Source: a virus
Virus record (IMG/VR): IMGVR_UViG_3300017941_000022
Span: 1 to 37,336 of that record
Length of the DNA stretch: 37,336 nt
Reading direction: 5' to 3' (one strand)
How positions within the stretch are numbered: position 1 is the stretch's first letter; each line of letters starts with the position of its first letter. A model generated the notes under the pieces. That model did no database searches and was not told where the DNA came from. It saw only the letters and a list, made by a program, of their open reading frames with translations. A program made the translations under genes and the position numbers. Below, in pieces: positions 22,024 through 34,964 of the stretch.

Positions 22024-22776
22024 TTACCACCCTCCGCCAGGAGTTGGCCAAAAAGAGTAAGTTGCATAGGTTTTGTTATAATTCCCGCCATTCAGGAATA
22101 TATTAAGTCCCATCGGTGAGGGAAGATTACCAACTATTTGGTAAATATTGCTTCCGCGTGTTGAGAAGTAAGCCCATGCACAAGGGTCTATTGTTCTATT
22201 CGGCCCAGTAGGACCGCCTTGATGAACAGACGACAGAGGCAAATTGTAATCAGTGTTATACCCGTTGTTAATGGGTTGAGTGAATGATGTTGTTGCATCA
22301 GGCCCAGATACAATTGCCTCTTGGATGTCTATAGACGTTAATCCATCCATACCAGTTCCGTGAACTTCAACAGTATATCCAGTACTCAAGTTTCCCACGA
22401 TGTCTACTTGGTCAAACTGGGGGGCTTGGCCGCACGTTCCCGTTTGTACAGTTGATGCTGGAGTTGTCGTTGTTTCCGGTGTTCCTTGATTAGCGGTTGT
22501 CGTGGAAGGCTGAAGTTGGGGTAACAAACTATTCAATTGTTCTAACGTTGAACTACTAGTTGTAGTAGCTGTTTCTCCTGTCGACGTCGAAACTGTTGTC
22601 TGAGTCTGAAGAGACTGTAGTTGCTGATACAAAGAAATCACTTGTTTGATTAGAGAGATAAGCACTACTCTTATTTGGTCGTCAGTCAATACTGGACTTG
22701 TCGTTTGCGCGTGTACTATGGGAATGCTAACATTAAGCATTACGAATAGTACGAGGGAAACGATGATTTTTTTCAT
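22024..22776 (-). CDS. Secreted surface protein of Patescibacteria type, 250 aa
   Basis: This is the only minus-strand gene. It has a clear signal peptide (M-K-K-I-I-V-S-L-V-L-F-V-M-L-N-V-S-I-P-I-V-H-A). Next is a helix D-D-Q-I-R-V-V-L-I-S-L-I-K-Q-V-I-S-L-Y-Q-Q-L-Q-S-L, a pattern common in Parcubacterial secreted proteins, then a Thr/Ser/Gln linker (about 60-115). The C-terminal domain (about 118-250) has two Cys (T-C-G-Q-A-P-Q-F-D-Q-V-D and P-C-A-W-A-Y-F) and no motif I know; it ends W-P-T-P-G-G-G-W. Its own promoter faces away from the tail operon. A lysogenic-conversion, superinfection-exclusion or host-surface role is inference; signs of host origin are strong. Confidence 0.8.
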   Translation of the reverse strand: MKKIIVSLVLFVMLNVSIPIVHAQTTSPVLTDDQIRVVLISLIKQVISLYQQLQSLQTQTTVSTSTGETATTTSSSTLEQLNSLLPQLQPSTTTANQGTPETTTTPASTVQTGTCGQAPQFDQVDIVGNLSTGYTVEVHGTGMDGLTSIDIQEAIVSGPDATTSFTQPINNGYNTDYNLPLSSVHQGGPTGPNRTIDPCAWAYFSTRGSNIYQIVGNLPSPMGLNIFLNGGNYNKTYATYSFWPTPGGGW

Positions 22777-22798: not shown

Positions 22799-22842
22799 CG
22801 ACCTTTAGTTATATAATATACTGTTTTATTGAAAAAGTAAAT
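22799..22842 (-). promoter_or_regulatory. Promoter and AAGGTCG leader of the minus-strand gene
   Basis: Reading the minus strand, TTTACTTTTTCA is followed by AACAGTATATTATATAACTA and then AAGGTCG (22805-22799). The ATG is 22 nt further on. The 20-mer is identical to one at 32943-32962 before the large non-coding RNA, and the -35 part matches there as well. Confidence 0.7.
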
Positions 22843-25559: not shown

Positions 25560-25632
25560 GCTTTGGCAGCTCATTGGAAATGAGCGTTCCCCTGAAGAGG
25601 GAAAGATAATGGTTCGATTCCATTCCGAAGCA
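25560..25632 (+). tRNA. tRNA-Phe(GAA)
   Basis: Acceptor GCTTTGG/CCGAAGC, D arm GCTC/GAGC with GG, anticodon loop CTGAAGA, T arm AATGG-TTCGATT-CCATT. Discriminator A, no full CCA. It lies upstream of the promoter at 25824, so it is on another transcript than the main array. Confidence 0.95.
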
Positions 25633-25634
25633 CT

Positions 25635-25805
25635 ATGGCTTTATTAATATGTGAAAAATGTAAAGCTATAATAGGCCCTCTGGGTGCTGAGATTGACACA
25701 GAGGAAATGTTATGCAGAGACTGCGCGATAAAAAAATACGGCCAAGCGTACGTCGATAATGCGGAAAATATGTCAGAAGATATAGAGGAAGAAGGCGATG
25801 ACTAG
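25635..25805 (+). CDS. Zinc-ribbon-like microprotein, 56 aa
   Basis: A small open frame begins 3 nt after the tRNA-Phe and ends TAG. It has C-E-K-C at residues 6-9 and C-R-D-C at 27-30, a two-CxxC zinc ribbon, and a very acidic tail (S-E-D-I-E-E-E-G-D-D). The clean Cys pattern and acidic end support that it is real. Such phage zinc ribbons often bind host RNA polymerase or nucleic acid; here that is only a suggestion. No Shine-Dalgarno sequence is visible. Confidence 0.65.
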   Translation: MALLICEKCKAIIGPLGAEIDTEEMLCRDCAIKKYGQAYVDNAENMSEDIEEEGDD

Positions 25806-25823
25806 TTATTAACATGGGGGGCC

Positions 25824-25857
25824 TTTACAAAAAAATAATAGCAGTTTAGTATATAAT
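25824..25857 (+). promoter_or_regulatory. Promoter of the main tRNA array
   Basis: TTTACA at 25824-25829, then 17 nt to TAGTAT (25847-25852) overlapping TATAAT (25852-25857). The first tRNA starts 14-18 nt further on. Confidence 0.6.
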
Positions 25858-25870
25858 CAGATATTCTAAT

Positions 25871-25938
25871 AGCGTGGCCTCCGGGAGGTGTCGGCACTCC
25901 AAACGCTGACTCGATGGGTTCAACTCCTATTCACGCTG
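25871..25938 (+). tRNA. tRNA-Trp(CCA), shortened D arm
   Basis: Acceptor AGCGTGG/TCACGCT, anticodon loop CTCCAAA, T arm ATGGG-TTCAACT-CCTAT, discriminator G. Only 14 nt separate acceptor and anticodon stems (CCTC-CGG-GAGG hairpin), so the D arm is reduced. The top anticodon pair is A-C. Confidence 0.75.
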
Positions 25939-25959
25939 CAAAGCAGATGGCTCCACCAG

Positions 25960-26000
25960 CCACTGCGCCATAAATGGAAAATATGGTAACTCGGTGGCGA
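25960..26000 (+). other. Inter-tRNA hairpin
   Basis: In the spacer after tRNA-Trp, GCCAC near 25960 can pair with GTGGC near 25994, enclosing GCCAT/ATGGT. The pairing is less perfect than in later spacers. Confidence 0.4.
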
Positions 26001-26188
26001 TGTATTATAGAAGAAGCAAAGAGGAGAGGAAGATGCGACGTGCTGCAAGGAAGCAAGTCATCGACCATACTCTTGACAGAAAACGCTATAATGCATTGCA
26101 TCCCCGAGGAAATAAAAAAGGCGGTCGGAGAAGAGGAAGTTCTTTTAAAGAATTGGCATATCGTTCAACGGTTAGGACACGGTTCTGA
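26000..26188 (+). CDS. Possible basic microprotein, 62 aa
   Basis: The open frame gives a very basic peptide (M-Y-Y-R-R-S-K-E-E-R-K-M-R-R-A-A-R-K-Q, later G-N-K-K-G-G-R-R-R-G-S-S-F). It fills a 200-nt gap between tRNA-Trp and tRNA-Ile, and its last 12 codons run into the tRNA-Ile gene, which speaks against the full length. A second frame (25974-26360) crosses several tRNAs and is less likely. No Shine-Dalgarno sequence and no known family. Confidence 0.3.
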   Translation: MYYRRSKEERKMRRAARKQVIDHTLDRKRYNALHPRGNKKGGRRRGSSFKELAYRSTVRTRF

Positions 26189-26225
26189 TAAGACCGGGAA
26201 AATGGTTCAATTCCATTTATGCCAA
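26154..26225 (+). tRNA. tRNA-Ile(GAT)
   Basis: Acceptor TGGCATA/TATGCCA (perfect), anticodon stem CGGTT/GACCG with loop CTGATAA, T arm ATGG-TTCAATT-CCAT. Discriminator A. One nucleotide separates it from the next tRNA. Confidence 0.92.
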
Positions 26226-26226
26226 C

Positions 26227-26297
26227 GCGTCGGTAACACAGTGGTAGTGTGTCTGCCTTCCAAGCAGATTACGTGGGTTCGATTCCCATCCGGTGCT
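26227..26297 (+). tRNA. tRNA-Gly(TCC)
   Basis: Acceptor GCGTCGG/CCGGTGC with two G-T pairs, anticodon stem TCTGC/GCAGA, loop CTTCCAA, T arm GTGGG-TTCGATT-CCCAT, discriminator T. Confidence 0.93.
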
Positions 26298-26350
26298 CCG
26301 GTATTAGAAATGTTGGAGACGACATGGAAGATACGCGACCTTTACAAAAT

Positions 26351-26422
26351 GCGCAGTTAGTTTAACGGATAGAATTCTTGGCTTCGAACCAAGAGATGAG
26401 GGTCCGATTCCTTCACAGCGCA
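26351..26422 (+). tRNA. tRNA-Arg(TCG)
   Basis: Acceptor GCGCAGT/ACAGCGC with one A-A mismatch, anticodon stem CTTGG/CCAAG, loop CTTCGAA, T arm GAGGG-TCCGATT-CCTTC (T54C55 instead of TT), discriminator A. Confidence 0.88.
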
Positions 26423-26435
26423 CATAAGTAAGTTT

Positions 26436-26556
26436 GCTGGTTTGGAAAAGACTAAACCAGCCGACAGGGGAGAATCGAAAGATGCTGTCCAATGGAAACT
26501 AGGACAGGGTACTGCCTACGGGATGTACTTTCCGGACTCCGACGATTCTTGCTCTG
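26436..26556 (+). ncRNA. Structured spacer RNA between tRNA-Arg and tRNA-Lys
   Basis: Hairpin GCTGGTTT/AAACCAGC (26436-26443, 26454-26461), then a junction closed by AGAATCG/CGATTCT (26471-26477, 26543-26549) that holds CTGTCC/GGACAG (26485-26490, 26502-26507). ACAG (26464) and CTGT (26553) may close it further. At about 120 nt this is the most elaborate spacer in the first half of the array. Confidence 0.5.
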
Positions 26557-26561
26557 TAAAT

Positions 26562-26634
26562 GCCTCGCTAACTCAATTGGCAGAGTAGCTCCCTCTTAAG
26601 GAGAAAGTTGAAGGTCCGAATCCTTCGCGTGGCA
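26562..26634 (+). tRNA. tRNA-Lys(CTT)
   Basis: Acceptor GCCTCGC/GCGTGGC with one T-T mismatch, anticodon loop CTCTTAA on CTCC/GGAG, T arm GAAGG-TCCGAAT-CCTTC, discriminator A. Confidence 0.88.
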
Positions 26635-26638
26635 CAAG

Positions 26639-26726
26639 GGTGAAGATTGAACGCGGTACAATCTCACCTGGGGGTACCCATTTTTATCGCCTGTGTGCGT
26701 CGACCGATTGGTCGATGGCAACAGGC
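26639..26726 (+). other. Inter-tRNA hairpins
   Basis: GGTG-A-AGATTG pairs with CAATCT-CACC (26639-26649, 26659-26668, one bulge). GCCTGT/ACAGGC (26689-26694, 26721-26726) encloses TCGACC/GGTCGA (26700-26705, 26710-26715). Confidence 0.6.
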
Positions 26727-26729
26727 CTT

Positions 26730-26801
26730 GTCCCTGTCGTTCAATGGACAGGACGTATCTTTCCTAAAGATATAATCGAGGTTCGATTCCTCGTGGGGAC
26801 A
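26730..26801 (+). tRNA. tRNA-Arg(CCT)
   Basis: Acceptor GTCCCTG/TGGGGAC, anticodon stem TATCT/AGATA with loop TTCCTAA, T arm CGAGG-TTCGATT-CCTCG, discriminator A. Confidence 0.92.
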
Positions 26802-26805
26802 CAAG

Positions 26806-26883
26806 GAAGTTGGGTGTGGTACACGCCAGTACGGTTGGTAGGGATTCCTACCCGTTACGTCACAATCTGGCAACACCAACTTC
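26806..26883 (+). other. Inter-tRNA extended stem
   Basis: GAAGTTGGGTGT (26806-26817) pairs with ACACCAACTTC (26873-26883) with one bulged G. Nested inside are GCCAG/CTGGC (26825-26829, 26867-26871) and GGTAGG/CCTACC (26837-26842, 26847-26852). Confidence 0.7.
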
Positions 26884-26887
26884 AATT

Positions 26888-26959
26888 GCCCTTGTCGTCC
26901 AATGGAAAGGACACAAAGCTTCTAACTTTGGAATCAGGGTTCGATTCCTTGCAGGGGTA
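26888..26959 (+). tRNA. tRNA-Arg(TCT)
   Basis: Acceptor GCCCTTG/CAGGGGT, anticodon stem CAAAG/CTTTG with loop CTTCTAA, T arm CAGGG-TTCGATT-CCTTG, discriminator A. Confidence 0.92.
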
Positions 26960-26960
26960 C

Positions 26961-27038
26961 GTGCTTCTAAAGCACTGGCGGTGTGGGGACGGGTGCAGTA
27001 ATGTTCTCGTCATTCTCTCCCGGGATAGAAATGTCCCG
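26961..27038 (+). other. Inter-tRNA hairpins
   Basis: GTGCTT/AAGCAC (26961-26966, 26970-26975, 3-nt loop) and CGGGA/TCCCG (27021-27025, 27034-27038). No outer helix is evident in this spacer. Confidence 0.5.
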
Positions 27039-27042
27039 TTAT

Positions 27043-27115
27043 TGCTCCTTAGCTCGATTGGCAGAGCAGTCGCCTTTTAAGCGAAAAGGTGCGGGTTCGA
27101 CTCCCGCAGGGGCAA
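27043..27115 (+). tRNA. tRNA-Lys(TTT)
   Basis: Acceptor TGCTCCT/AGGGGCA, D arm AGCTC/GAGC, anticodon loop CTTTTAA on TCGC/GCGA, T arm GCGGG-TTCGACT-CCCGC, discriminator A. Confidence 0.95.
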
Positions 27116-27116
27116 C

Positions 27117-27242
27117 AAAGACGGACAGTGATGAAAGGGCTACTTCGGTAAATCTAAATTGAAACCTTAGATTATTGGTTCGACTCCAATTTCCCCCACA
27201 TAACGGGGGAAATAAAACCCTTACTACTTTTCTTCCGTTTTT
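27117..27242 (+). ncRNA. Circularly permuted tRNA-like element, Phe-like anticodon arm
   Basis: An outer 9-bp helix AAAGACGGA/TCCGTTTTT (27117-27125, 27234-27242) encloses, in order, an anticodon arm CTAAA-TTGAAAC-CTTAG (27154-27170, GAA in loop, top pair A-C), a T arm ATTGG-TTCGACT-CCAAT (27174-27190), the 3' acceptor strand TTCCCCC (27191-27197), then ACATAAC, then a perfect 5' acceptor strand GGGGGAA (27205-27211). No matching 5' strand lies upstream. The order is that of a permuted tRNA gene opened in the D arm, but no normal D stem can be formed, so a tRNA-derived structural element is also possible. Confidence 0.5.
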
Positions 27243-27244
27243 AT

Positions 27245-27316
27245 ACCTCGTTAACTCATTGGCAGAGTGGCTGTTCTACACACAGTTCGCAGGGGGTTCG
27301 ATTCCTCCACGGGGTA
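27245..27316 (+). tRNA. tRNA-Val(TAC), C33
   Basis: Acceptor ACCTCGT/ACGGGGT, D arm ACTC/GAGT, anticodon stem GCTGT/ACAGT with loop TCTACAC (C at position 33), T arm GGGGG-TTCGATT-CCTCC, discriminator A. A 9-nt-loop reading would give CTA, which is less likely. Confidence 0.8.
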
Positions 27317-27318
27317 CA

Positions 27319-27480
27319 TGTTTCTTAATTGAGACATTGGTCGGGTGGTGACCTTCTGTTTAAACACAACGGGCAGTGACGTAACAGTTACTTCGTCAAA
27401 TGGTATGACAATTCCCATCCAAGGAATTATCGTAGGTTCAATTCCTACAGTAATCAATCTGTTACATATTTTCTCCCGTT
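27319..27480 (+). other. Spacer helices around the Gly-like tRNA
   Basis: TGTTTC/GAGACA near 27319-27336 and GGTC-GGGTGGT-GACC (a D-arm-like hairpin) come first. AACGGG (27368-27373) pairs with CCCGTT (27475-27480), and GTAACAG (27381-27387) with CTGTTAC (27459-27465), both enclosing the Gly-like tRNA. Confidence 0.5.
27386..27456 (+). tRNA. tRNA-Gly-like (TCC), degenerate
   Basis: Acceptor AGTTACT/AGTAATC with the first pair A-C, short D stem GTC/GAC, anticodon stem ATTCC/GGAAT with loop CATCCAA (A at position 33), T arm GTAGG-TTCAATT-CCTAC. It may be inactive or structural; it lies inside two flanking helices. Confidence 0.55.
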
Positions 27481-27482
27481 AT

Positions 27483-27554
27483 AGGCAATTCGTTCAATGG
27501 TTAGGACCGCAATCTTATAAGTTGCGTACATTGGTTCGATTCCAATATTGCCTA
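27483..27554 (+). tRNA. tRNA-Ile(TAT)
   Basis: Acceptor AGGCAAT/ATTGCCT, D arm GTTC/GGAC, anticodon stem GCAAT/GTTGC with loop CTTATAA, T arm ATTGG-TTCGATT-CCAAT, discriminator A. The UAU anticodon reads AUA without lysidine, which is uncommon in bacteria. Confidence 0.92.
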
Positions 27555-27557
27555 CAA

Positions 27558-27661
27558 GGTAATTGAGACCGAAAGGTTATGTAAAAATATCCTACCCATG
27601 TTGCAACTATTGGTGGTACGTTCTTATATAATCCACCTGAAGGGAATGGAGACCAATTACC
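27558..27661 (+). other. Inter-tRNA extended stem
   Basis: GGTAATTG (27558-27565) pairs perfectly with CAATTACC (27654-27661). Inside are GACC-GAAA-GGTT and GGTGG/CCACC (27612-27616, 27633-27637). Confidence 0.7.
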
Positions 27662-27666
27662 AAGAT

Positions 27667-27737
27667 TCTCCTGTAGGTCAATGGTAGACCGAGCGGCTGT
27701 TAACCGCTGAATGTTGGTTCGATTCCAACTGGGAGAG
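27667..27737 (+). tRNA. tRNA-Asn(GTT)
   Basis: Acceptor TCTCCTG/TGGGAGA, anticodon stem AGCGG/CCGCT with loop CTGTTAA, T arm GTTGG-TTCGATT-CCAAC, discriminator G. Confidence 0.93.
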
Positions 27738-27740
27738 CAA

Positions 27741-27826
27741 GGTTCTCTGAATCGTAAGTAAGCAGTGTAGTGGTAAGGCGACCGTGTGACGTTCACGGTG
27801 TTATGAGGTTTTTGGTTCAGAGAACC
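27741..27826 (+). other. Inter-tRNA element with 11-bp terminal repeat
   Basis: GGTTCTCTGAA (27741-27751) pairs perfectly with TTCAGAGAACC (27816-27826). The interior contains a D-loop-like AGTGGTAAGG and a stem CCGTG-TGACGTT-CACGG that resembles an anticodon arm, but no T arm. Confidence 0.7.
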
Positions 27827-27832
27827 GATAAT

Positions 27833-27904
27833 TTCGCGGTGGTGGAACAGTAACCACGTCTGTCTCATAAGCAGAAGAAGAGGGGGCAGCACCCTCCTGC
27901 GAAA
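27833..27904 (+). tRNA. tRNA-Met(CAT) with non-canonical D and T loops
   Basis: Acceptor TTCGCGG/CTGCGAA, D stem GTGG/CCAC with loop AACAGTAA (no GG), anticodon stem TCTGT/GCAGA with loop CTCATAA, T stem GAGGG/CCCTC with loop GGCAGCA instead of TTCRANT. Discriminator A. All four stems fold, yet the usual D-T loop contact cannot form. Confidence 0.8.
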
Positions 27905-27905
27905 C

Positions 27906-27976
27906 GCCCTACTAGTTTAGTGGCAGAACTACTCCCTTGTAACGAGTAGACGAAAGTTCGATTCTTTCGTAGGGCT
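27906..27976 (+). tRNA. tRNA-Thr(TGT)
   Basis: Acceptor GCCCTAC/GTAGGGC (perfect), anticodon stem ACTCC/CGAGT with C-C at the top pair, loop CTTGTAA, T arm GAAAG-TTCGATT-CTTTC, discriminator T. Confidence 0.9.
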
Positions 27977-28000
27977 CTGTCCTACCTGATTAGACGACCC

Positions 28001-28023
28001 GAGGTATGGTAAAGGCATACCTC
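28001..28023 (+). other. Inter-tRNA hairpin
   Basis: GAGGTATG pairs perfectly with CATACCTC around a 7-nt loop GTAAAGG. Confidence 0.7.
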
Positions 28024-28027
28024 AAAT

Positions 28028-28098
28028 GCCTTCCTAGTTTAGTGGAAGAACACTGCTTTCGTAAAGCAGGAGCATAGGTTCGATTCCTATGGTTGGCT
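28028..28098 (+). tRNA. tRNA-Thr(CGT)
   Basis: Acceptor GCCTTCC/GGTTGGC with two adjacent T-T mismatches, anticodon stem CTGCT/AGCAG, loop TTCGTAA, T arm ATAGG-TTCGATT-CCTAT, discriminator T. Confidence 0.85.
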
Positions 28099-28108
28099 CT
28101 TGGATTTT

Positions 28109-28155
28109 TACGGCTTTTCCTACCTCTGTACAAGGTTCGAAAGTGGAAAACCGTA
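28109..28155 (+). other. Inter-tRNA extended stem
   Basis: TACGG-c-TTTTCC (28109-28120) pairs with GGAAAACCGTA (28145-28155), 11 bp with one bulged C. The loop contains AAGGTTCGAAAG, which resembles a T loop. Confidence 0.7.
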
Positions 28156-28157
28156 TT

Positions 28158-28228
28158 GCGATAGTCGTATATTGGCAGTACGACGCCTTGCCAAGGCGTA
28201 AGAGGGAGTTCGATTCTCCTCTATTGCT
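28158..28228 (+). tRNA. tRNA-Gly(GCC)
   Basis: Acceptor GCGATAG/CTATTGC, anticodon stem ACGCC/GGCGT with loop TTGCCAA, T arm GGGAG-TTCGATT-CTCCT, discriminator T followed by an encoded CCA (28229-28231). Confidence 0.93.
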
Positions 28229-28241
28229 CCACCGTCCCGAA

Positions 28242-28314
28242 GGAGCGCAGAAATCGGGAGGGAGGTTCTAGGGTCTTGATGGACGCATTAAGAAAACCGA
28301 ACCCTATGCGCTCC
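28242..28314 (+). other. Inter-tRNA extended stem
   Basis: GGAGCGCA (28242-28249) pairs perfectly with TGCGCTCC (28307-28314), and TAGGGT (28269-28274) with the adjoining ACCCTA (28301-28306). On the 3' side the two strands are continuous. Confidence 0.7.
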
Positions 28315-28316
28315 AC

Positions 28317-28388
28317 GCCGCCATGATGCTAGTGGTAACATGCTTTCATGGTAAGAAAGATTCGCAGGTTCGATTCCTGCTGGTGGCT
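28317..28388 (+). tRNA. tRNA-Thr(GGT)
   Basis: Acceptor GCCGCCA/TGGTGGC, anticodon stem CTTTC/GAAAG with loop ATGGTAA, T arm GCAGG-TTCGATT-CCTGC, discriminator T. Confidence 0.93.
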
Positions 28389-28391
28389 CAA

Positions 28392-28452
28392 AGAAAAAGA
28401 AGAAGTGAAGAATGGTAAGAATTCTAGATAAAACTTACCGACTTCTTTTTCT
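28392..28452 (+). other. Inter-tRNA extended stem
   Basis: AGAAAAAGAAG (28392-28402) pairs with CTTCTTTTTCT (28442-28452), 11 bp, and GGTAAG/CTTACC (28414-28419, 28434-28439) lies inside. Confidence 0.7.
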
Positions 28453-28455
28453 AAT

Positions 28456-28542
28456 GCGTTGGTAGTCCGGTAGGGGGCCGGGGCTGTCTGTAAAACAGTT
28501 GGTGGCTTAGCCCTCCCGATGGTTCGACTCCATCTCAACGCA
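28456..28542 (+). tRNA. tRNA-Tyr(GTA), class II
   Basis: Acceptor GCGTTGG/TCAACGC, anticodon stem GCTGT/ACAGT with loop CTGTAAA, long variable arm, T arm GATGG-TTCGACT-CCATC, discriminator A. Confidence 0.93.
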
Positions 28543-28751
28543 CAAAGCTATTGGTAATTCGTCGAGGAAAGGTTATTCTTTTCCCCGGCGAAGTACGTGC
28601 CGGATTAGCTGTTCGACAACTCAATCAGGGAGAGACGCGTATGAAACGCAGACGGAAGATGATTCAGATGGCGCGACACGACGACCCACAGACCAGCGTC
28701 TAGTCGCGAAACCGATGGAGGGGCAGGCGAAGCTTTGCCCCTCCAGATAAT
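28543..28751 (+). other. 210-nt structured spacer between tRNA-Tyr and tRNA-His
   Basis: No tRNA is found. Hairpins: 28558-28592 (14-nt arms, GAGGAAAG/CTTTTCC core), AGACGC/GCGTCT (28633-28638, 28696-28701) and GGAGGGGCA/TGCCCCTCC (28717-28725, 28736-28744). A 20-codon basic frame M-K-R-R-R-K-M-I-Q-M at 28641-28703 has AGGGAGA 7 nt upstream, so a microprotein is possible. Confidence 0.45.
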
Positions 28752-28824
28752 GGTGTTACTAGTGTAATTGGCAGCACTCCTCTTTGTGACAGAGTCAGTA
28801 TGGGTTCGAGTCCCATGTATCACC
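28752..28824 (+). tRNA. tRNA-His(GTG)
   Basis: G at -1 (28752) faces C73 (28824), the His identity pair. Acceptor GTGTTAC/GTATCAC has one T-T mismatch. Anticodon loop TTGTGAC, T arm ATGGG-TTCGAGT-CCCAT. CCA is encoded at 28825-28827. Confidence 0.92.
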
Positions 28825-28827
28825 CCA

Positions 28828-28898
28828 CGGAAATTGGTGTATCAGCTGCACACATGTTTCGGGTACATGTTGGCTGAGTTCAACTCTCAGATTTCCGA
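28828..28898 (+). tRNA. tRNA-Pro(CGG)
   Basis: Acceptor CGGAAAT/ATTTCCG (C1-G72 as in bacterial tRNA-Pro), anticodon stem CATGT/ACATG with loop TTCGGGT, T arm CTGAG-TTCAACT-CTCAG, discriminator A. CCA (28899-28901) overlaps the next tRNA. Confidence 0.93.
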
Positions 28899-28899
28899 C

Positions 28900-28970
28900 C
28901 AGGCTATAGTGAAACGGCATCACACGTGTTTTGGGTACACGTTTTCTCGGTTCGAGTCCGAGTAGCTTGA
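28900..28970 (+). tRNA. tRNA-Pro(TGG)
   Basis: Acceptor CAGGCTA/TAGCTTG, anticodon stem CGTGT/ACACG with loop TTTGGGT, T arm CTCGG-TTCGAGT-CCGAG, discriminator A. Its first two bases are also the CA of the preceding tRNA CCA end. Confidence 0.92.
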
Positions 28971-28974
28971 CAAG

Positions 28975-29013
28975 GTTTTCATTTAGCAATGCGGATAGCT
29001 TCGAAATGAAAAC
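28975..29013 (+). other. Inter-tRNA hairpin
   Basis: GTTTTCATTT (28975-28984) pairs perfectly with AAATGAAAAC (29004-29013) around a 19-nt loop. Confidence 0.75.
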
Positions 29014-29019
29014 TGGTTT

Positions 29020-29090
29020 CCCTTCATCGTTTAACGGCAGGACGTTCCCCTGTCACGGGAAAGGAAGCGGTTCAATTCCGCTTGGAGGGG
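29020..29090 (+). tRNA. tRNA-Asp(GTC)
   Basis: Acceptor CCCTTCA/TGGAGGG, anticodon stem TTCCC/GGGAA with loop CTGTCAC, T arm AGCGG-TTCAATT-CCGCT, discriminator G as expected for Asp. C1-G72 is unusual for Asp. Confidence 0.9.
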
Positions 29091-29093
29091 CAA

Positions 29094-29137
29094 AGAGATA
29101 TCGTTGTGTCGGTTTCTTGTCGATGACGGATATCTCT
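29094..29137 (+). other. Inter-tRNA hairpin
   Basis: AGAGATATC (29094-29102) pairs perfectly with GATATCTCT (29129-29137) around a 26-nt interior. Confidence 0.75.
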
Positions 29138-29140
29138 AAT

Positions 29141-29215
29141 GGCATCATCTGCTAGTCTGGACTAGGCAACGCGGTTTTCACCCGCGGAACATCGGTTCGA
29201 ATCCGATTGGTGCTA
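29141..29215 (+). tRNA. tRNA-Glu(TTC)
   Basis: Acceptor GGCATCA/TGGTGCT, anticodon stem CGCGG/CCGCG with loop TTTTCAC, T arm ATCGG-TTCGAAT-CCGAT, discriminator A. Confidence 0.93.
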
Positions 29216-29226
29216 CTGAGACAAAT

Positions 29227-29313
29227 AGTGAGATGGGTGAGAGGATTAAACCGGTAGTCTTGAAAACTACTAGCCCTTAATTGGACTCAAGCGTTCGAAT
29301 CGCTTTCTCACTG
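29227..29313 (+). tRNA. tRNA-Ser(TGA), class II
   Basis: Acceptor AGTGAGA/TCTCACT (perfect), anticodon stem GTAGT/ACTAC with loop CTTGAAA, long variable arm, T arm AAGCG-TTCGAAT-CGCTT, discriminator G. Confidence 0.94.
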
Positions 29314-29337
29314 CACAGAAAAAATCTTGCAGGTTCT

Positions 29338-29347
29338 GTGGTATAAT
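29338..29347 (+). promoter_or_regulatory. Extended -10 promoter of the HNH gene
   Basis: TGTGGTATAAT, with TATAAT at 29342-29347 inside a short inverted repeat TCTGT/ACAGA. The ATG begins 7 nt after the box, so the mRNA should be leaderless. Confidence 0.55.
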
Positions 29348-29353
29348 ACAGAC

Positions 29354-29881
29354 ATGAAGCTTGTAGGAGCTTGTTCTGGTAAGATGCACGTAAAGTCTTG
29401 TGGCAAGAGACACGCGTATTGTCTTATATGTAAACCCAATAGAAAGAATCCCGCAAAGGGAAACAGAAATTGGGGATTTAGAAATCACGATAGATTGGTA
29501 AAGGGAGCAGAAACGAAAATAAGAAATGGTTCTGCTGCTGGAGAAAACAATCCGAATTATCGTGGCGGAAAAATCAAACATAGTTTAGTTGGTTGGAATA
29601 GAGTTAGAAGACAAGTTTGGGAAAGAGATAAGTTGTGTAGAGTTTGCAATAAACTACCTCATAAAAACAGAAGATTTGATATTCATCATAGAATACCTAG
29701 AAGAAAAGGCGGTACAGATTCTTTAGAAAATCTTCTTGGAGTTCATCATGGATGTCACATGAAATTAGAAACTGGAAAAGTGGCCGAGAGGATTAAGGCG
29801 GTCGTCCCGAAAACGACTAATCCGCAAGGATTCACAAGTTCGAATCTTGTCTTTTCCGCATGGGCTTGTAATTGGCTTTGA
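29354..29881 (+). CDS. HNH endonuclease inside the tRNA array, 175 aa
   Basis: Residues 1-30 carry a zinc-knuckle-like C-G-K-R-H-A-Y-C-L-I-C. The HNH core is clear: L-C-R-V-C-N-K (95-100), F-D-I-H-H-R-I-P-R-R-K-G-G (109-120), D-S-L-E-N-L-L-G-V-H-H-G-C-H-M (122-136). NUMOD-type G-E-N-N-P-N-Y-R-G-G lies at 63-72. It has its own leaderless promoter. The last 35 codons (from residue 141) run through a complete tRNA-Ser(CGA) and a little beyond, so the C-terminal tail is translated tRNA sequence and probably has no catalytic role. A free-standing homing nuclease that inserted next to, or was captured by, a tRNA gene would explain this. Confidence 0.85.
   Translation: MKLVGACSGKMHVKSCGKRHAYCLICKPNRKNPAKGNRNWGFRNHDRLVKGAETKIRNGSAAGENNPNYRGGKIKHSLVGWNRVRRQVWERDKLCRVCNKLPHKNRRFDIHHRIPRRKGGTDSLENLLGVHHGCHMKLETGKVAERIKAVVPKTTNPQGFTSSNLVFSAWACNWL
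29774..29858 (+). tRNA. tRNA-Ser(CGA), class II, within HNH gene
   Basis: Acceptor GGAAAAG/CTTTTCC (perfect), anticodon stem GTCGT/ACGAC with loop CCCGAAA (C33), long variable arm, T arm ACAAG-TTCGAAT-CTTGT, discriminator G. It lies entirely inside the reading frame of the HNH nuclease on the same strand. Confidence 0.92.
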
Positions 29882-30038
29882 TTACGTTCGCCCTTTGATG
29901 TTGCGTTACCGACCATGGGAGCTGAGGTCGTTAAACTCGTTCTCAAAAATAAATGCTGAAAAACGCATTACACTTGCAGATTACTTAGGTATTTCTGCGA
30001 CGCCTTTGCATTTGTCTGCTTACTCGTTTGTATAAGGT
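29882..30038 (+). other. Spacer without recognised gene
   Basis: About 157 nt with no tRNA that I can fold. A hairpin GTAAT/ATTAC lies near 29869-29886 and AATGC/GCATT near 29951-29968. TTGCAT and TATAAG near 30007-30037 could be a weak promoter. Confidence 0.3.
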
Positions 30039-30171
30039 GTTATATAAGTAAGCTGGTGGAGCGGCCCGAATCCCCTTACAAGGAAAAGTTGCCAGTTCAC
30101 AATTGGATATGTAACGTAGAAAATATTAAAGAAGCAATGTAAGACGGCGGTTCAACTCCGCCCAAGTCCAC
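30039..30171 (+). ncRNA. Composite tRNA-like element (Val-like anticodon arm, Ala-like 3' end)
   Basis: GTTATAT (30039-30045) can pair with ATGTAAC (30109-30115) around a D-arm-like GCTGGTGGAGC, a loop CTTACAA (UAC) and a T-loop-like CCAG-TTCACAA-TTGG. A second, perfect T arm GGCGG-TTCAACT-CCGCC (30146-30162) and CAAGTCCA follow, but no upstream strand complements CAAGTCC. It may be a rearranged or split tRNA or a remnant. Confidence 0.35.
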
Positions 30172-30182
30172 GGATTATTTAA

Positions 30183-30269
30183 GATGGGTTGACTGAGCGG
30201 CTTAAGGTGTCTCTTTGCTAAAGAGAAGGCCCTTCACGGGACCCAGTGGTTCGAATCCACTACCCATCG
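30183..30269 (+). tRNA. tRNA-Ser(GCT), class II
   Basis: Acceptor GATGGGT/ACCCATC (perfect), anticodon stem TCTCT/AGAGA with loop TTGCTAA, variable arm GGCCCTTCACGGGACC, T arm AGTGG-TTCGAAT-CCACT, discriminator G. Confidence 0.94.
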
Positions 30270-30293
30270 CTGAATAAATTAAAAAAATAAAAA

Positions 30294-30539
30294 ATGTCAA
30301 ACGTAACCATTTATTCAACACCAACTTGTTATTTTTGCAAAAAGGCAAAGGAATTTTTCAAGAAAAACAACATACAGTATGACGAGGTGAACGTTTCAGA
30401 ATCAGAGAAATCTTTAGATGATTTCGTCAAAATGTCTGGAAGTAGAGCTGTCCCAGTTATCGTTATCAATGGAGAACAGTTTCTTGGATATGATGAAGAA
30501 GTTTTAAAGAAGAAATTGGCGATATCGACTAAAGGTTAG
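30294..30539 (+). CDS. Glutaredoxin-like protein, 81 aa
   Basis: The protein is a minimal glutaredoxin/NrdH-type thioredoxin fold: V-T-I-Y-S-T-P-T-C-Y-F-C-K-K-A-K with the redox pair Cys12-x-x-Cys15, a cis-Pro in R-A-V-P-V-I-V-I-N-G (about 52-61), and G-Y-D-E-E near the end where the family has G-F/Y-D. It would reduce disulphides, for example in a ribonucleotide reductase, using glutathione or thioredoxin reductase. The last seven residues (L-A-I-S-T-K-G) are encoded by bases that also form the 5' end of tRNA-Glu(CTC), so the gene overlaps a tRNA by 22 nt. It sits alone among tRNAs; no Shine-Dalgarno sequence is visible. Confidence 0.88.
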   Translation: MSNVTIYSTPTCYFCKKAKEFFKKNNIQYDEVNVSESEKSLDDFVKMSGSRAVPVIVINGEQFLGYDEEVLKKKLAISTKG

Positions 30540-30589
30540 GTCGGTACCCTCTCAAGGTATAAATATGGGTTCGATTCCCATTATCGCTA
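30518..30589 (+). tRNA. tRNA-Glu(CTC)
   Basis: Acceptor GGCGATA/TATCGCT, D arm GAC/GTC with GG, anticodon stem GTACC/GGTAT with loop CTCTCAA, T arm ATGGG-TTCGATT-CCCAT, discriminator A. Its first 22 nt overlap the glutaredoxin gene. Confidence 0.9.
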
Positions 30590-30606
30590 CTGGGTCGTAA
30601 CCGCAC

Positions 30607-30680
30607 GCACCGGTGATGGAACTGGGATACATATTCGTCTTAGAAACGAAGTTTTAGGGGTTCGACTCCCCTCTGGTGCA
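30607..30680 (+). tRNA. tRNA-Leu(TAG), short variable loop
   Basis: Acceptor GCACCGG/CTGGTGC, Leu-like D region TGATGGAACTGGGATACAT, anticodon stem TTCGT/ACGAA with loop CTTAGAA, T arm AGGGG-TTCGACT-CCCCT, discriminator A, CA follows. Only 5 nt (GTTTT) form the variable loop, where bacterial Leu tRNAs have a long arm. Confidence 0.85.
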
Positions 30681-30684
30681 CAGA

Positions 30685-30768
30685 GCTCTCTTGGTGGAAT
30701 GGTAGACACAAACGCCTCAAAAGCGTTCGTCCGCAAGGGCAGTAGAGGTTCGACTCCTCTAGGGAGCA
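30685..30768 (+). tRNA. tRNA-Leu(CAA), class II
   Basis: Acceptor GCTCTCT/AGGGAGC, anticodon stem AACGC/GCGTT with loop CTCAAAA, variable arm CGTCCGCAAGGGCAGT, T arm AGAGG-TTCGACT-CCTCT, discriminator A. Confidence 0.94.
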
Positions 30769-30771
30769 CTA

Positions 30772-30885
30772 TGATACGAAGGTGAGAGGCACGAGTAAAG
30801 TTATAGTTGGAGTGCGGTCCGAGTGGAACCTTAAGGTATTTTGACTATAACGTAAGCCCTAAACTCAATATCTCAAATCGTATCA
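30772..30885 (+). ncRNA. Large inter-tRNA structured element
   Basis: TGATACGA (30772-30779) pairs with TCGTATCA (30878-30885). Inside, TGAGA/TCTCA and GAGT/ACTC continue the stem, then GTTATAGT (30800-30807) pairs perfectly with ACTATAAC (30844-30851) around GGTCC-gagt-GGAACC. This is the longest regular spacer structure, about 114 nt. Confidence 0.65.
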
Positions 30886-30889
30886 GATT

Positions 30890-30970
30890 GCCATAGTGGC
30901 GGAATGGTATACGCGGAACACTTAAAACGTTCTGGCGAAAGTCATGTGGGTTCGACTCCCACCTATGGTA
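30890..30970 (+). tRNA. tRNA-Leu(TAA), class II
   Basis: Acceptor GCCATAG/CTATGGT, anticodon stem GAACA/CGTTC with A-C at the top pair, loop CTTAAAA, short variable arm TGGCGAAAGTCAT, T arm GTGGG-TTCGACT-CCCAC, discriminator A. Confidence 0.92.
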
Positions 30971-30971
30971 C

Positions 30972-31043
30972 CGCCTTATCTTTCAATGGATAGGAAATCT
31001 CCCTGCGAAGGAGGAAATTGTGGTTCGATTCCACATGGGGCGA
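30972..31043 (+). tRNA. tRNA-Arg(GCG)
   Basis: Acceptor CGCCTTA/TGGGGCG, anticodon loop CTGCGAA on CTCC/GGAG, T arm TGTGG-TTCGATT-CCACA, discriminator A. The anticodon begins with G, where bacteria normally use ACG with inosine. Confidence 0.9.
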
Positions 31044-31044
31044 C

Positions 31045-31116
31045 GGGCTTGTAGTGATAAAAGTAGCACGGGATACTTGCAATATCTCAGAGGCGGGGCA
31101 GTACCGCCCAGGTCCA
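31045..31116 (+). tRNA. tRNA-Ala(TGC) with non-canonical D and T loops
   Basis: Acceptor GGGCTTG/CAGGTCC, D stem GTG/CAC with loop ATAAAAGTAG (no GG), anticodon stem GGATA/TATCT with loop CTTGCAA, T stem GGCGG/CCGCC with loop GGCAGTA, discriminator A. Its loops match the tRNA-Met at 27833. Confidence 0.82.
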
Positions 31117-31119
31117 CAT

Positions 31120-31254
31120 GGAATAGTTAAGTCTGGCTGGTAAAATGTACAACGACTTTTATGTCGTGCGTAAAAGGCAGAATAGGCCAGATAGATTATT
31201 CCTACTGATGAGAGAATGAAATGGTTCTCTTTCTTTAATTTCAATTCTGCCTTT
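31120..31254 (+). ncRNA. Inter-tRNA element with two alternative folds
   Basis: Fold A: GGAATA/TATTCC (31120-31125, 31197-31202), TCTGGC/GCCAGA (31132-31137, 31186-31191), ACGAC/GTCGT (31152-31156, 31163-31167). Fold B: AAAGGCAGAAT (31173-31183) with ATTCTGCCTTT (31244-31254), 11 perfect bp just before tRNA-Gln. The 5' part of fold B overlaps the interior of fold A. Confidence 0.6.
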
Positions 31255-31256
31255 AT

Positions 31257-31327
31257 TGCCGAATCCTCTAATGGTAGGAGGACAAGCTCTGAACTTGAAA
31301 ATGGAGGTTCGATTCCTTCTTCGGCAG
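31257..31327 (+). tRNA. tRNA-Gln(CTG)
   Basis: Acceptor TGCCGAA/TTCGGCA (perfect), anticodon loop CTCTGAA on CAAG/CTTG, T arm GGAGG-TTCGATT-CCTTC, discriminator G. Confidence 0.92.
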
Positions 31328-31333
31328 CTGGAA

Positions 31334-31404
31334 TGCAGGGTCGTCTAGTGGTAGGACCGGAGCCCTTGAAACTCTGTAGCTTGGTTCGAATCCAAGCCCT
31401 GCAG
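31334..31404 (+). tRNA. tRNA-Gln(TTG), C33
   Basis: Acceptor TGCAGGG/CCCTGCA (perfect), anticodon stem GGAGC/ACTCT with C-A at the top pair, loop CCTTGAA (C33), T arm CTTGG-TTCGAAT-CCAAG, discriminator G. Confidence 0.88.
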
Positions 31405-31411
31405 CCGTATT

Positions 31412-31485
31412 GACGTGGTAACCAAGTCTGGCCAGGTGGTTGCCTGCAAAGCAATCTTACGCGGGTTCAAATCCCGCCCACGTCT
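31412..31485 (+). tRNA. tRNA-Cys(GCA)
   Basis: Acceptor GACGTGG/CCACGTC (perfect), anticodon stem GTTGC/GCAAT with loop CTGCAAA, T arm GCGGG-TTCAAAT-CCCGC, discriminator T. Last tRNA of the array. Confidence 0.94.
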
Positions 31486-31505
31486 CAGTGTGATAAGCAA
31501 CTATT

Positions 31506-32567: not shown

Positions 32568-32861
32568 ATGAAGTTTAAAGAACTGGAACGTCTCATCGTT
32601 GCTGACTACAGGAAGCGAAAGCCGAGAAGGAAAAGATTGGCTAGATTTCTGTCAGTCGTTGAAGAAGTGGGAGAAGTTGCAGCCTGCTTCATTGCCAAAC
32701 TTCAAAGAGACAACTACAAGAATTCAGATTTCGAAGAAGAAGTCGCTGACGTTTTCATGAACGTTGTCGCTCTTGCACGAGATTTGAAAGTCAATCTGGA
32801 AAAAGCTGTCATGAGAAAAATCCAGAAAGACAAGAAGAACAGGGGCGCTCCGATTTCTTAG
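32568..32861 (+). CDS. MazG-like NTP pyrophosphohydrolase, 97 aa
   Basis: The all-alpha MazG motif is clear: V-E-E-V-G-E-V-A (Glu32, Glu33, Glu36) followed after about 22 residues by E-E-V-A-D-V-F-M-N (Glu58, Asp61). These acidic residues bind the metal that hydrolyses nucleoside triphosphates to monophosphates. In phages MazG homologues are proposed to lower (p)ppGpp or clean the nucleotide pool. The ATG has a good Shine-Dalgarno sequence (AGGGAGG, 9 nt upstream), unlike the structural genes. The stop codon lies in the loop of the terminator hairpin. Confidence 0.85.
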   Translation: MKFKELERLIVADYRKRKPRRKRLARFLSVVEEVGEVAACFIAKLQRDNYKNSDFEEEVADVFMNVVALARDLKVNLEKAVMRKIQKDKKNRGAPIS

Positions 32862-32875
32862 GGGCGCCCATTTTT
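32843..32875 (+). terminator. Rho-independent terminator after mazG-like gene
   Basis: GGGCGC (32843-32848) pairs with GCGCCC (32864-32869), then ATTTTT. Confidence 0.85.
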
Positions 32876-32927
32876 ATTGATATATTCACATATATAAAGC
32901 GTGAAAAGTTAAGAACAGCCCCCGCCA

Positions 32928-32962
32928 TTTACTTTTTCAGAGAACAGTATATTATATAACTA
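32928..32962 (+). promoter_or_regulatory. Promoter of the large non-coding RNA
   Basis: TTTACT (32928-32933) and AACAGTATATTATATAACTA (32943-32962). The second block is identical on the minus strand at 22825-22806, and TTTACTTTTTCA is shared as well, so both are copies of one promoter type. Confidence 0.7.
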
Positions 32963-33515
32963 TACGGAAGGGACAGCAGATTGAAAACTTAAAAGTTAGA
33001 TTCCTAATCACTGGAGTAGCATAACAACCGGGCAGAAGTTAGAAGAACTACAACTTCCCCATGGTAATGCATTTAGCAGACAACGGGATTCGGCGGTGCA
33101 TGGCGTATCTATGCATCTTGTGTTGAACGATTAAGGAGATGCATCTCCAAACACATTGAAAAAGAATAATAAAAATCTCCACTGCTATCGTATTGGCTAA
33201 GAACCAGGGTCATAAAAAAACTGATGAGGACAATCTCTTGGCGGAAGTGATAACGCTTCCGTAAGCCATCTTGCAACTGGTCGAGGGATATCGCCTCCTC
33301 CAGTAATTAGGAATCTAATATCTTGGTATCCCGCATACGGGGTCTTACCCGCAGTCTTGTACAAGCGAAAAATAGTCGAATCGGGCGAGTAGGACTCGGT
33401 ATACGGGATATCACAATCCCGTTTCTCAGAATAGGAGAGAAATTCTCTGGAAAAAGATGATGGAGGTACACGGCCGATAAATCCCGTCGAAAATTAAGCT
33501 AGATGCTCCTAAATC
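32962..33515 (+). ncRNA. Large structured non-coding RNA, about 550 nt
   Basis: There is no credible reading frame. TAGATTCCTAATCACTGGAG (32997-33016) pairs with CTCCAGTAATTAGGAATCTA (33298-33317) in 19 of 20 positions. Inside and after it are hairpins GAAGTT/AACTTC (33035, 33052), GGTGCAT/ATGCATC (33095, 33111), GGAGATGCATCTCC (33135), CGGAAG/CTTCCG (33242, 33256), a helix GGTATCCCG/CGGGATATC (33325-33333, 33403-33411) and CGAGT-AGG-ACTCG (33385-33397). It has its own promoter. Size, multi-helix architecture and position after a phage tRNA island resemble GOLLD and ROOL RNAs; I cannot verify membership by eye. Confidence 0.75.
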
Positions 33516-33539
33516 TTGAAGTTCTGGGAAAATAAACTA

Positions 33540-33546
33540 AAGGTCG
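33540..33546 (+). promoter_or_regulatory. AAGGTCG motif, GHKL gene
   Basis: AAGGTCG in the context AAACTAAAGGTCG, 17 nt before the ATG at 33564. Confidence 0.4.
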
Positions 33547-33563
33547 AGAAAAAACTAAAAACC

Positions 33564-34964
33564 ATGCAAACCCAAAACTGGTTTGAAGTTTCTAAGCAGG
33601 GCTTGAAAGAATTACAAGCAGGTAAGCCCAAACATTATGCAGCAAGAGAGCTTGTTCAAAATGCTTGGGATGAGAACATTACCCTCTGCGACTTTAGGAC
33701 AGATTACTCTCATGGTCTTGCCAATCTATTAGTTATAGATGATAACCCTGACGGTTTTCGAAATATTGCAGATGCTTTCACGTTATTTGCTCCGACAATA
33801 AAACGTTCAGACGCTGAAAAGCGGGGAAGGTTCAATCTAGGAGAAAAGCAAGTATTGGCGATAGCAAATTCTGCAATCATCAAAACTACGAAAGGTTCTG
33901 TAATCTTTTCAGAAGAAGGCAGAAGCCAGAGTAGAGAATCAACTAAAGTTGGTAGCGAGGTCAGTGTCAACATTAGGATGACACAAGAAGAATATGAAGA
34001 ACTTCTCAAAGAAGTTAATACATATCTTCCACCAAAGGGAATTGTTTTCACTGTGAATGGTAAAAAAATCCCATTCAAAGAGCCTTACAAGGTAATTCCC
34101 GAAGTCTCGCTGTTGACAGAAATCGAATCTAATGGTGTTTTACGAAGGACAACTCGTAAGACGTCGGTTGAAGTTTACAGAACAGTTGGTCAAGCTAGAT
34201 TGTACGAAATGGGTTTACCCGTCGTAGATATAGACTGCCAATTCAACGTAAACGTCAATCAGAAGATTCCTCTTTCAATAGACAGGGATACGGTTCCCCC
34301 GTCTTATCTGAAAGCGATATTTGCAGAGGTGCTCAATGCAACTCATGAAGATATTGCAGAAGAGGGTTCTTCAGCTGTATGGATTCGTGAAGCAACTTCA
34401 GATAAGAGGATAAGTGCTGAAGCTGTGAAGAATATTGTTGAGAAAAGATTCGGCAATAAAGTCGTTGTAGCTAATCCTTTCGATTCTCAAGCTAATGATG
34501 AAGCGATATCTCATGGATATAGAGTCATTAGAGGCAGAGAATTGTCGGAGGGAGAATGGGACAATGTCAAAAAAGCCGAAGCAATAAAATCTTCATCTGC
34601 AATATTCGGTAGCAATTACACTACGTCTAAACCGTATGACCCGGATGAGAATATGGTCAGGGTTGCAGACTTAGCGAAGAAAATTGCTAAAAAGTGTCTG
34701 GGAATTAACATCACTGTTAGTTTCGCATCGTGGGATGGTTCTGTATCAGCTCAATTCGGAGAAAAACATTTGAGCTTCAACGTACAGAATCTAGGCAAGA
34801 AGTTCTTTGAGAAACCCGTCAGTGAGCAAACGATAAATCTTATCGTTCACGAAATTGCTCACACGAATGGGAGCCACACTGAACATGCTTACCATGAGAC
34901 CATCACGAAGTTAGCAGGTCAGCTAACTATGTTGGCACTTGAAGAACCCGAATTCTTCAAGTAA
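33564..34964 (+). CDS. GHKL ATPase with C-terminal HExxH motif, 466 aa
   Basis: The ATG at 33564 is preferred over the TTG at 33516. Residues 20-115 are a GHKL (Hsp90/histidine kinase/MutL) ATP-binding domain: N box A-R-E-L-V-Q-N-A-W-D-E (Glu29, Asn33), G1 box V-I-D-D-N-P-D-G-F (57-65), G2 region R-F-N-L-G-E-K-Q-V-L-A-I-A-N-S (89-103). A second beta-rich domain follows (about 120-280), as in T4 rIIA-like proteins. The C-terminus has I-V-H-E-I-A-H-T-N-G-S-H-T-E-H (His429, Glu430, His433, further His438/441/444), a zinc-metallopeptidase signature. Joining ATPase and protease motifs suggests an ATP-controlled protease or effector, a defence, anti-defence or host-takeover candidate. Role is inference. 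Confidence 0.8.
   Translation: MQTQNWFEVSKQGLKELQAGKPKHYAARELVQNAWDENITLCDFRTDYSHGLANLLVIDDNPDGFRNIADAFTLFAPTIKRSDAEKRGRFNLGEKQVLAIANSAIIKTTKGSVIFSEEGRSQSRESTKVGSEVSVNIRMTQEEYEELLKEVNTYLPPKGIVFTVNGKKIPFKEPYKVIPEVSLLTEIESNGVLRRTTRKTSVEVYRTVGQARLYEMGLPVVDIDCQFNVNVNQKIPLSIDRDTVPPSYLKAIFAEVLNATHEDIAEEGSSAVWIREATSDKRISAEAVKNIVEKRFGNKVVVANPFDSQANDEAISHGYRVIRGRELSEGEWDNVKKAEAIKSSSAIFGSNYTTSKPYDPDENMVRVADLAKKIAKKCLGINITVSFASWDGSVSAQFGEKHLSFNVQNLGKKFFEKPVSEQTINLIVHEIAHTNGSHTEHAYHETITKLAGQLTMLALEEPEFFK

What the first reader, a model, noticed from the sequence alone, without database searches (positions are those of the whole stretch)
32962..33515. About 550-nt ornate non-coding RNA with its own promoter between mazG-like and GHKL genes
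The stretch has no credible frame, yet it carries a 20-nt helix across about 280 nt (19 of 20 paired), a 9-bp helix with 70-nt span, and at least five local hairpins. A terminator isolates it on the left and a strong promoter starts it. GOLLD and ROOL RNAs of similar size sit beside phage tRNA islands; if this is neither, it is a new class, and from a Patescibacteria-type phage it would in any case be a distant member.
Basis: partly seen in the sequence, partly recalled or inferred. Interest (0 to 1): 0.93.

Follow-up and report, generated by a model that had tools for sequence, protein, structure and literature searches.

The report
Phage non-coding RNA clamped end-to-end
A bacterial virus carrying 33 tRNA genes very probably also makes a roughly 550-letter RNA that codes for no protein and is clamped by a 22-pair helix; related viruses carry differently spelled RNAs of the same build next to their tRNA genes, and none matches a catalogued RNA family.

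Summary
Window 32862-33563 has no credible ORF. A terminator sits on its left, and a promoter at 32928-32955 has one near-identical copy elsewhere in the window. The helix 32995-33016/33298-33319 (P1, 21 of 22 paired) is the best long-range inverted repeat in the 37 kb. The excess folding stability comes from P1 and a second rod, domain B (33324-33413). The 281 nt inside P1 and the local hairpins are at chance level.

It is not GOLLD or ROOL, and no Rfam family fits. Relatives were found through the capsid gene. Three of them (G007, G021, G025) carry an ORF-poor, P1-bounded stretch 106-227 nt upstream of a tRNA-Met; in G007 and G021 a strongly folded second domain follows P1, as here. Two sequence links exist: G031b (59 nt inside P1, two compensatory hairpin changes) and G005 (P1 arms, four compensatory pairs). 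Both are short.

Best reading: a real structured phage RNA of a lineage-specific, fast-evolving class. P1 probably works like the leader-trailer helix of pre-rRNA, excising or protecting the RNA. Transcription, processing and function are inferred. In some relatives similar stems bracket protein genes, so P1 may be a general processing device rather than the mark of one RNA family.

The parts
32843..32869 (+). intrinsic terminator of the mazG-side operon (9-bp stem, 9-nt loop, tail ATTTTTATT 32870-32878)
   Evidence: -20 kcal/mol, z -3.35; sequence read directly
32928..32955 (+). promoter: -35 TTTACT, 16 nt, -10 TATTAT; inside a longer motif TTTACTTTTTCA-(4-5 nt)-ACAGTATATTATATAACTA found exactly twice in the window
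32962..33530 (+). predicted non-coding RNA; start inferred from the promoter, 3' end not defined
   Evidence: no ORF; fold z -4.45
32995..33016 (+). P1, 5' arm of the long clamp helix (21 of 22 paired; one C.A)
33298..33319 (+). P1, 3' arm
33017..33297 (+). domain enclosed by P1; folding stability at chance level (z -1.2)
33228..33290 (+). stretch shared with the RNA G031b of a related phage; hairpin 33242-33248/33255-33261 with two double compensatory changes, plus invariant GCCA 33265-33268 / UGGU 33278-33281
33324..33413 (+). domain B: 90-nt rod directly 3' of P1
   Evidence: (z -5.3)
33364..33380 (+). 17-nt loop AGCGAAAAATAGTCGAA, identical in an otherwise unrelated ~950-nt RNA beside tRNA arrays of rumen phages; probably chance
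33069..33506 (+). possible alternative or pseudoknot pairing P2: 33069-33077/33498-33506 and 33083-33090/33480-33487; crosses P1
   Evidence: second best long-range duplex, -38.2; not significant alone
33537..33551 (+). CTAAAGGTCGAGAAA element of the next gene, a motif also found before other starts in this window
33564..34964 (+). GHKL-type ATPase gene downstream (true start ATG 33564)
32568..32861 (+). MazG-like gene upstream

Best explanation
The region encodes a phage structured non-coding RNA transcribed rightward from its own promoter at 32928-32955. Its 5' and 3' parts are joined by a 22-bp end-to-end helix (P1) enclosing about 280 nt, and a second rod (domain B) follows at once. The same build recurs in the same phage lineage, often just upstream of tRNA-Met, with nearly unrelated sequence: a fast-evolving lineage-specific RNA class. 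Most likely mechanism: P1 acts like the leader-trailer helix of pre-16S/pre-23S rRNA, closing the RNA on itself during transcription, giving a double-strand RNase (RNase III type) a site to cut it out of the longer phage transcript, and protecting the excised unit. The processed RNA would then accumulate as a stable RNA during infection, as ROOL does in its host. Supported by sequence: absence of ORF, P1, domain B, terminator, a repeated promoter motif, recurrence in relatives, compensatory changes. Inferred: transcription, processing, stability, any role.
For: P1 is the best inverted repeat of the window and domain B has z -5.3. Three relatives carry a P1-bounded stretch upstream of tRNA-Met on the same strand: G007 (24 pairs, span 341), G021 (19 pairs, span 162), G025 (score 23.3, span 276), ending 128, 106 and 227 nt before it. 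In G007 and G021 P1 is followed directly by a domain nearly as strongly folded as W's (z -4.1, -4.2). On the chosen strand, P1 helices of ten candidates have 31 G.U against 4 C.A pairs, as expected for RNA, not DNA, selection. W and G031b share 59 nt inside P1: z 4.8, 0 of 150 shuffles; z 3.8, 1 of 100 in a rerun, with two compensatory hairpin changes. W and G005 P1 arms: p 0.0005 before correction for 55 pairs, four double compensatory pairs. The pre-rRNA parallel, including a 27-bp pre-23S leader-trailer helix processed by RNase III, is from PMC10250234.
Against: No relative aligns over the whole RNA: nhmmer of W against 1.5 Mb (both strands) finds nothing and named phages give no match. P1 covariation is pairwise only; in the W/G005 count 36 of 500 shuffles reach the observed score. 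In W itself P1 has one G.U and one C.A, so it does not show the strand. The strand in each relative was partly chosen by the G.U count. The P1 interior folds no better than shuffles. P1-like stems also bracket protein genes in G015 and G034, so P1 alone does not define an RNA gene. G025's following domain is less distinctive (z -2.2). No terminator was found before the GHKL gene, so a long leader is possible. Expression and RNase III cutting are untested.
Confidence: 0.5

Rival explanations
1. A long structured 5' leader of the GHKL operon that controls GHKL expression in cis (riboswitch- or attenuator-like) rather than an independent RNA.
For: The promoter is 600 nt upstream of the GHKL start and no good terminator was found between; competing helices exist, e.g. 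33083-33090 can pair with 33415-33423 or 33480-33487.
Against: In G007, G021 and G025 the same build precedes tRNA-Met, and in G031 other small genes. The one GHKL homologue found, in huge phage LR745208, has no such RNA upstream. GHKL has its own CTAAAGGTCGAGAAA element next to its start.
Confidence: 0.2
2. A third family of large tRNA-island RNAs that, like ROOL and GOLLD, assembles into RNA-only multimers; P1 and domain B are part of the fold itself, not a processing device.
For: Size, location by a 33-tRNA array, promoter and predicted fold match the profile of ROOL/GOLLD (PMC12286853). An unrelated rumen phage carries ROOL plus another unclassified ~950-nt RNA around one tRNA array, so more such families probably exist.
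Against: Length varies widely in relatives (P1 spans 162-341 nt) with almost no conserved sequence; P1 interior not unusually stable.
Confidence: 0.2
3. A mobile DNA element with terminal inverted repeats, or a recombination/replication site, rather than an RNA.
For: P1 is a near-perfect 22-bp inverted repeat at DNA level; W has equal G.U and C.A departures.
Against: No target-site duplication seen at the arms (sequence); single copy; G.U strongly exceeds C.A in relatives (31 to 4); in G031 the unit fits exactly between a stop and the next start codon.
Confidence: 0.05
4. Decayed coding sequence that happens to fold.
For: Similar stems bracket intact genes in G015 and G034.
Against: No convincing frame under three codes; P1 and domain B intact; shared hairpin with compensatory changes.
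Confidence: 0.05

Closest known systems
ROOL RNA (Rfam RF03087)
   Same: about 550-660 nt, phage-borne, near tRNA islands, non-coding, elaborate fold
   Different: No covariance-model match at E<=10. The model works: it finds a ROOL in phage G037 with E 2e-72.
GOLLD RNA (Rfam RF02032)
   Same: phage-borne, by tRNA genes; one studied GOLLD lies downstream of a Met-tRNA (PMC12286853)
   Different: No match at E<=10; shorter than the >800 nt of many GOLLD RNAs.
Leader-trailer helices of pre-16S/pre-23S rRNA (PMC10250234)
   Same: long helix (27 bp for pre-23S) between the flanks of a structured RNA; a few relatives have boxA-like words in the 5' arm
   Different: What is enclosed is not rRNA; cleavage by RNase III untested; W has no significant boxA-like word (7/12, p 0.5).
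Unclassified ~950-nt RNA of rumen phages (L158/L160/L305, found here)
   Same: 5' of a phage tRNA array, promoter-like sequence upstream, no Rfam match; shares the 17-mer AGCGAAAAATAGTCGAA in a hairpin loop
   Different: Nothing else aligns; the 17-mer occurs at chance frequency in genomes (31 hits, about 30 expected).

Membership tests
ROOL (RF03087) | covariance-model match at or above 99.1 bits | tested here: not met
ROOL (RF03087) | location near phage tRNA island | tested here: met
   33 tRNAs + tmRNA at 25560-31486
GOLLD (RF02032) | conserved 3' domain detected by the Rfam model (150 bits) | tested here: not met
OLE, HEARO and all other Rfam 15 families | any match better than chance | tested here: not met
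   best of 751 nt is E 1.2, far below gathering
P1 + domain B RNA class of this phage lineage (proposed here) | long P1 helix in an ORF-free stretch downstream of a promoter | tested here: met
P1 + domain B RNA class of this phage lineage (proposed here) | independent strongly folded domain directly 3' of P1 | tested here: met
   W -5.3, G007 -4.1, G021 -4.2; G025 weaker at -2.2
P1 + domain B RNA class of this phage lineage (proposed here) | sequence homology and covariation across members | tested here: inconclusive
   W-G031b and W-G005 only, short stretches
RNase III-processed precursor (leader-trailer helix) | helix of more than about 17 bp joining the two flanks | tested here: met
   22 positions, 21 paired, one C.A mismatch
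RNase III-processed precursor (leader-trailer helix) | cleavage by RNase III and a stable product | not testable with these tools
   needs RNA-seq or in vitro cleavage

The most novel reading that the evidence does not exclude
This phage lineage packages individual genes, both non-coding RNAs and small protein genes, as modules each bracketed by its own long G.U-tolerant leader-trailer helix (19-27 bp), in the manner of rRNA precursors and in some cases with boxA-like words in the 5' arm. The window RNA would be one such module: a large stable RNA of a new family made beside the phage's own tRNA supply.
Probability: 0.25. Interest if true: 0.85.

Novelty: new variant of a known kind. Interest (0 to 1): 0.6.

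Why it matters
Large RNAs beside phage tRNA islands (ROOL, GOLLD) form RNA-only cages and have no known function. A further, sequence-unrelated RNA in another phage lineage with a diagnostic end-to-end clamp would show that such RNAs arose more than once, and would give a defined, testable element (P1) for asking how they are excised and kept stable. The bracketing of protein genes by the same kind of stem in relatives would add an rRNA-style processing scheme to phage operons.

Tried and rejected
GHKL and MazG proteins as bait in IMG/VR: nothing. RNA as DNA query against named phages: nothing better than E 0.7. Three 15-16-mer scans of the RNA: two gave chance hits, mostly coding; the third gave rumen phages with a tRNA-side RNA (L158-L160). 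I first took that as a homologue. A 14-mer scan, a 17-mer scan of 85k genomes at chance frequency and no other shared k-mers in common order make it suggestive at best. Two different patterns hitting contig 3300048597_000624: chance context on inspection. Structured gaps of relatives compared by blastn: no substantial shared sequence between distinct lineages. GHKL homologue in huge phage LR745208: no RNA upstream. boxA in W: 7/12, p 0.5, rejected for W. A covariance model from W and G031b finds no third member: best other hit E 0.03 on the opposite strand in the window's tRNA array, then E 1.5. Long-range helix in G023 looks coding, rejected. P2 pseudoknot: kept only as an alternative.

Full report
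The window is a linear 37.3-kb virus record with a structural module, 33 tRNAs and a tmRNA (25560-31486), an HNH gene, a MazG-like gene ending at 32861, the stretch in question, and a GHKL-type ATPase whose true start is ATG 33564.

Observation. No frame over 55 aa lies between MazG and GHKL in table 11, and two other codes do not reveal a gene. A 9-bp terminator with a T-rich tail closes the MazG side (32843-32869). The promoter at 32928-32955 is ordinary by consensus, but its two blocks, TTTACTTTTTCA and ACAGTATATTATATAACTA, occur exactly twice in the window, here and before the lone minus-strand gene at 22776. Folding z is -4.8 on + and -3.3 on -. Splitting the region shows where this comes from: P1 and the rod that follows it (domain B, 33324-33413, z -5.3). 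The 281 nt inside P1 have z -1.2, and the number of strong helices overall is that of shuffled sequence. So the two main helices are real outliers and the 'five local hairpins' are not.

Known families. Neither gathering nor relaxed cmscan gives anything. Direct searches with ROOL and GOLLD models are empty for the window; the ROOL model does find a strong ROOL in a rumen phage record searched alongside.

Relatives. The capsid protein has 35 relatives at 45-73% identity, five in records of about 61-62 kb. None has a blastn-detectable copy of the RNA, or a GHKL or MazG relative. A scan for long-range helices over about 0.73 Mb of relatives' DNA shows outstanding P1-like helices in intergenic slots: G007, G005, G015/G016, G019, G025, G021 and two in G031. 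In G007, G021 and G025 the bracketed stretch ends 128, 106 and 227 nt before a tRNA-Met on the same strand; in G007 and G021 P1 is followed directly by a second domain with z -4.1 and -4.2, as in W. Background: 1.19 Mb of unrelated phage DNA gave 11 helices of score 20 or more, several of them in GC-rich sequence. The P1 helices of ten candidates carry 31 G.U against 4 C.A pairs on the favoured strand; since the strand was partly picked by score, this is supportive, not a clean test.

Sequence links. Among pairwise comparisons of nine candidates, W against G031b stands out: 59 nt at 68% identity, z 4.8, 0 of 150 shuffles (rerun with other boundaries z 3.8, 1 of 100). It lies inside P1 in both, near the 3' arm in W. 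It holds a hairpin, CGGAAGU-GAUAAC-GCUUCCG in W and CGAUAGU-UGAAAC-GCUGUCG in G031b, with two pairs changed on both sides, and an invariant GCCA/UGGU pairing. The P1 arms of W and G005 align at 13 of 20 (p 0.0005 for this pair, 55 pairs compared), with four double compensatory pairs, three G.U exchanges and one C.A in W. These links are real-looking but short, and no third member joined a model built from W and G031b.

Caveat on P1. In G015 two consecutive small protein genes, and in G034 one, are bracketed by the same kind of stem. P1 therefore looks like a device used by this lineage for units of transcript, not the mark of one RNA family. That is why I read it as a leader-trailer helix as in pre-rRNA (PMC10250234), where such helices of 27 bp or more carry RNase III sites. 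Some 5' arms (G015b, G005, G031b) hold boxA-like words; the window's does not.

Verdict. A structured non-coding RNA, or less likely a structured leader of the GHKL gene, is well supported. That it is the window's copy of a lineage-specific RNA class beside tRNA genes is supported by position, build and two short homologies. Excision by RNase III, stability and any ROOL-like assembly are inference.

Noticed in passing
L158 6807-7756 (+), L160 2143-3080 (-), L305 6960-7920 (-): Three rumen-type phage contigs share a conserved ~950-nt non-coding RNA directly 5' of a tRNA array, with no Rfam match better than chance; the RNAalifold consensus has 234 pairs, 19 changed on both sides in one sequence. 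Looks like a further giant tRNA-island RNA family.
   Followed up: partly
L163 1501-2111 / G037:C1:12649-13259 (-): The same phage G037 also carries a clear ROOL RNA (302 bits) within the same tRNA array, so one phage holds two different large RNAs.
   Followed up: partly
L067 13271-13539 and 13553-14010; L318 6612-7060: Single small protein genes bracketed by long inverted repeats (17-27 paired bases, with G.U pairs), in G015 with boxA-like TGTTCYTTAACA at the 5' arm.
   Followed up: partly
window 1711, 13058, 22808 (-), 33537, 36271: Recurrent element CTAAAGGTCGAGAAA (0-3 mismatches) a short distance before start codons; an unusual ribosome-binding or 5'-UTR motif.
   Followed up: no
window 32928-32962 (+) and 22806-22842 (-): Two near-identical long promoters, the only copies in the window.
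   Followed up: partly
window 25560-31486: 33 tRNAs plus tmRNA; no tRNA for Met, Ala or Trp was called, and the predicted tmRNA tag ends in SAYSFV. Relatives carry mostly just a tRNA-Met.
   Followed up: no
window 33564-34964; L097 10004-11461: The GHKL-type protein has a 38%-identical homologue in a 485-kb uncultured huge phage, LR745208.1.
   Followed up: partly
L307 2333-2407: ARAGORN calls a tRNA with anticodon CTA (labelled tRNA-Pyl) in rumen phage G037, possibly a TAG suppressor.
   Followed up: no
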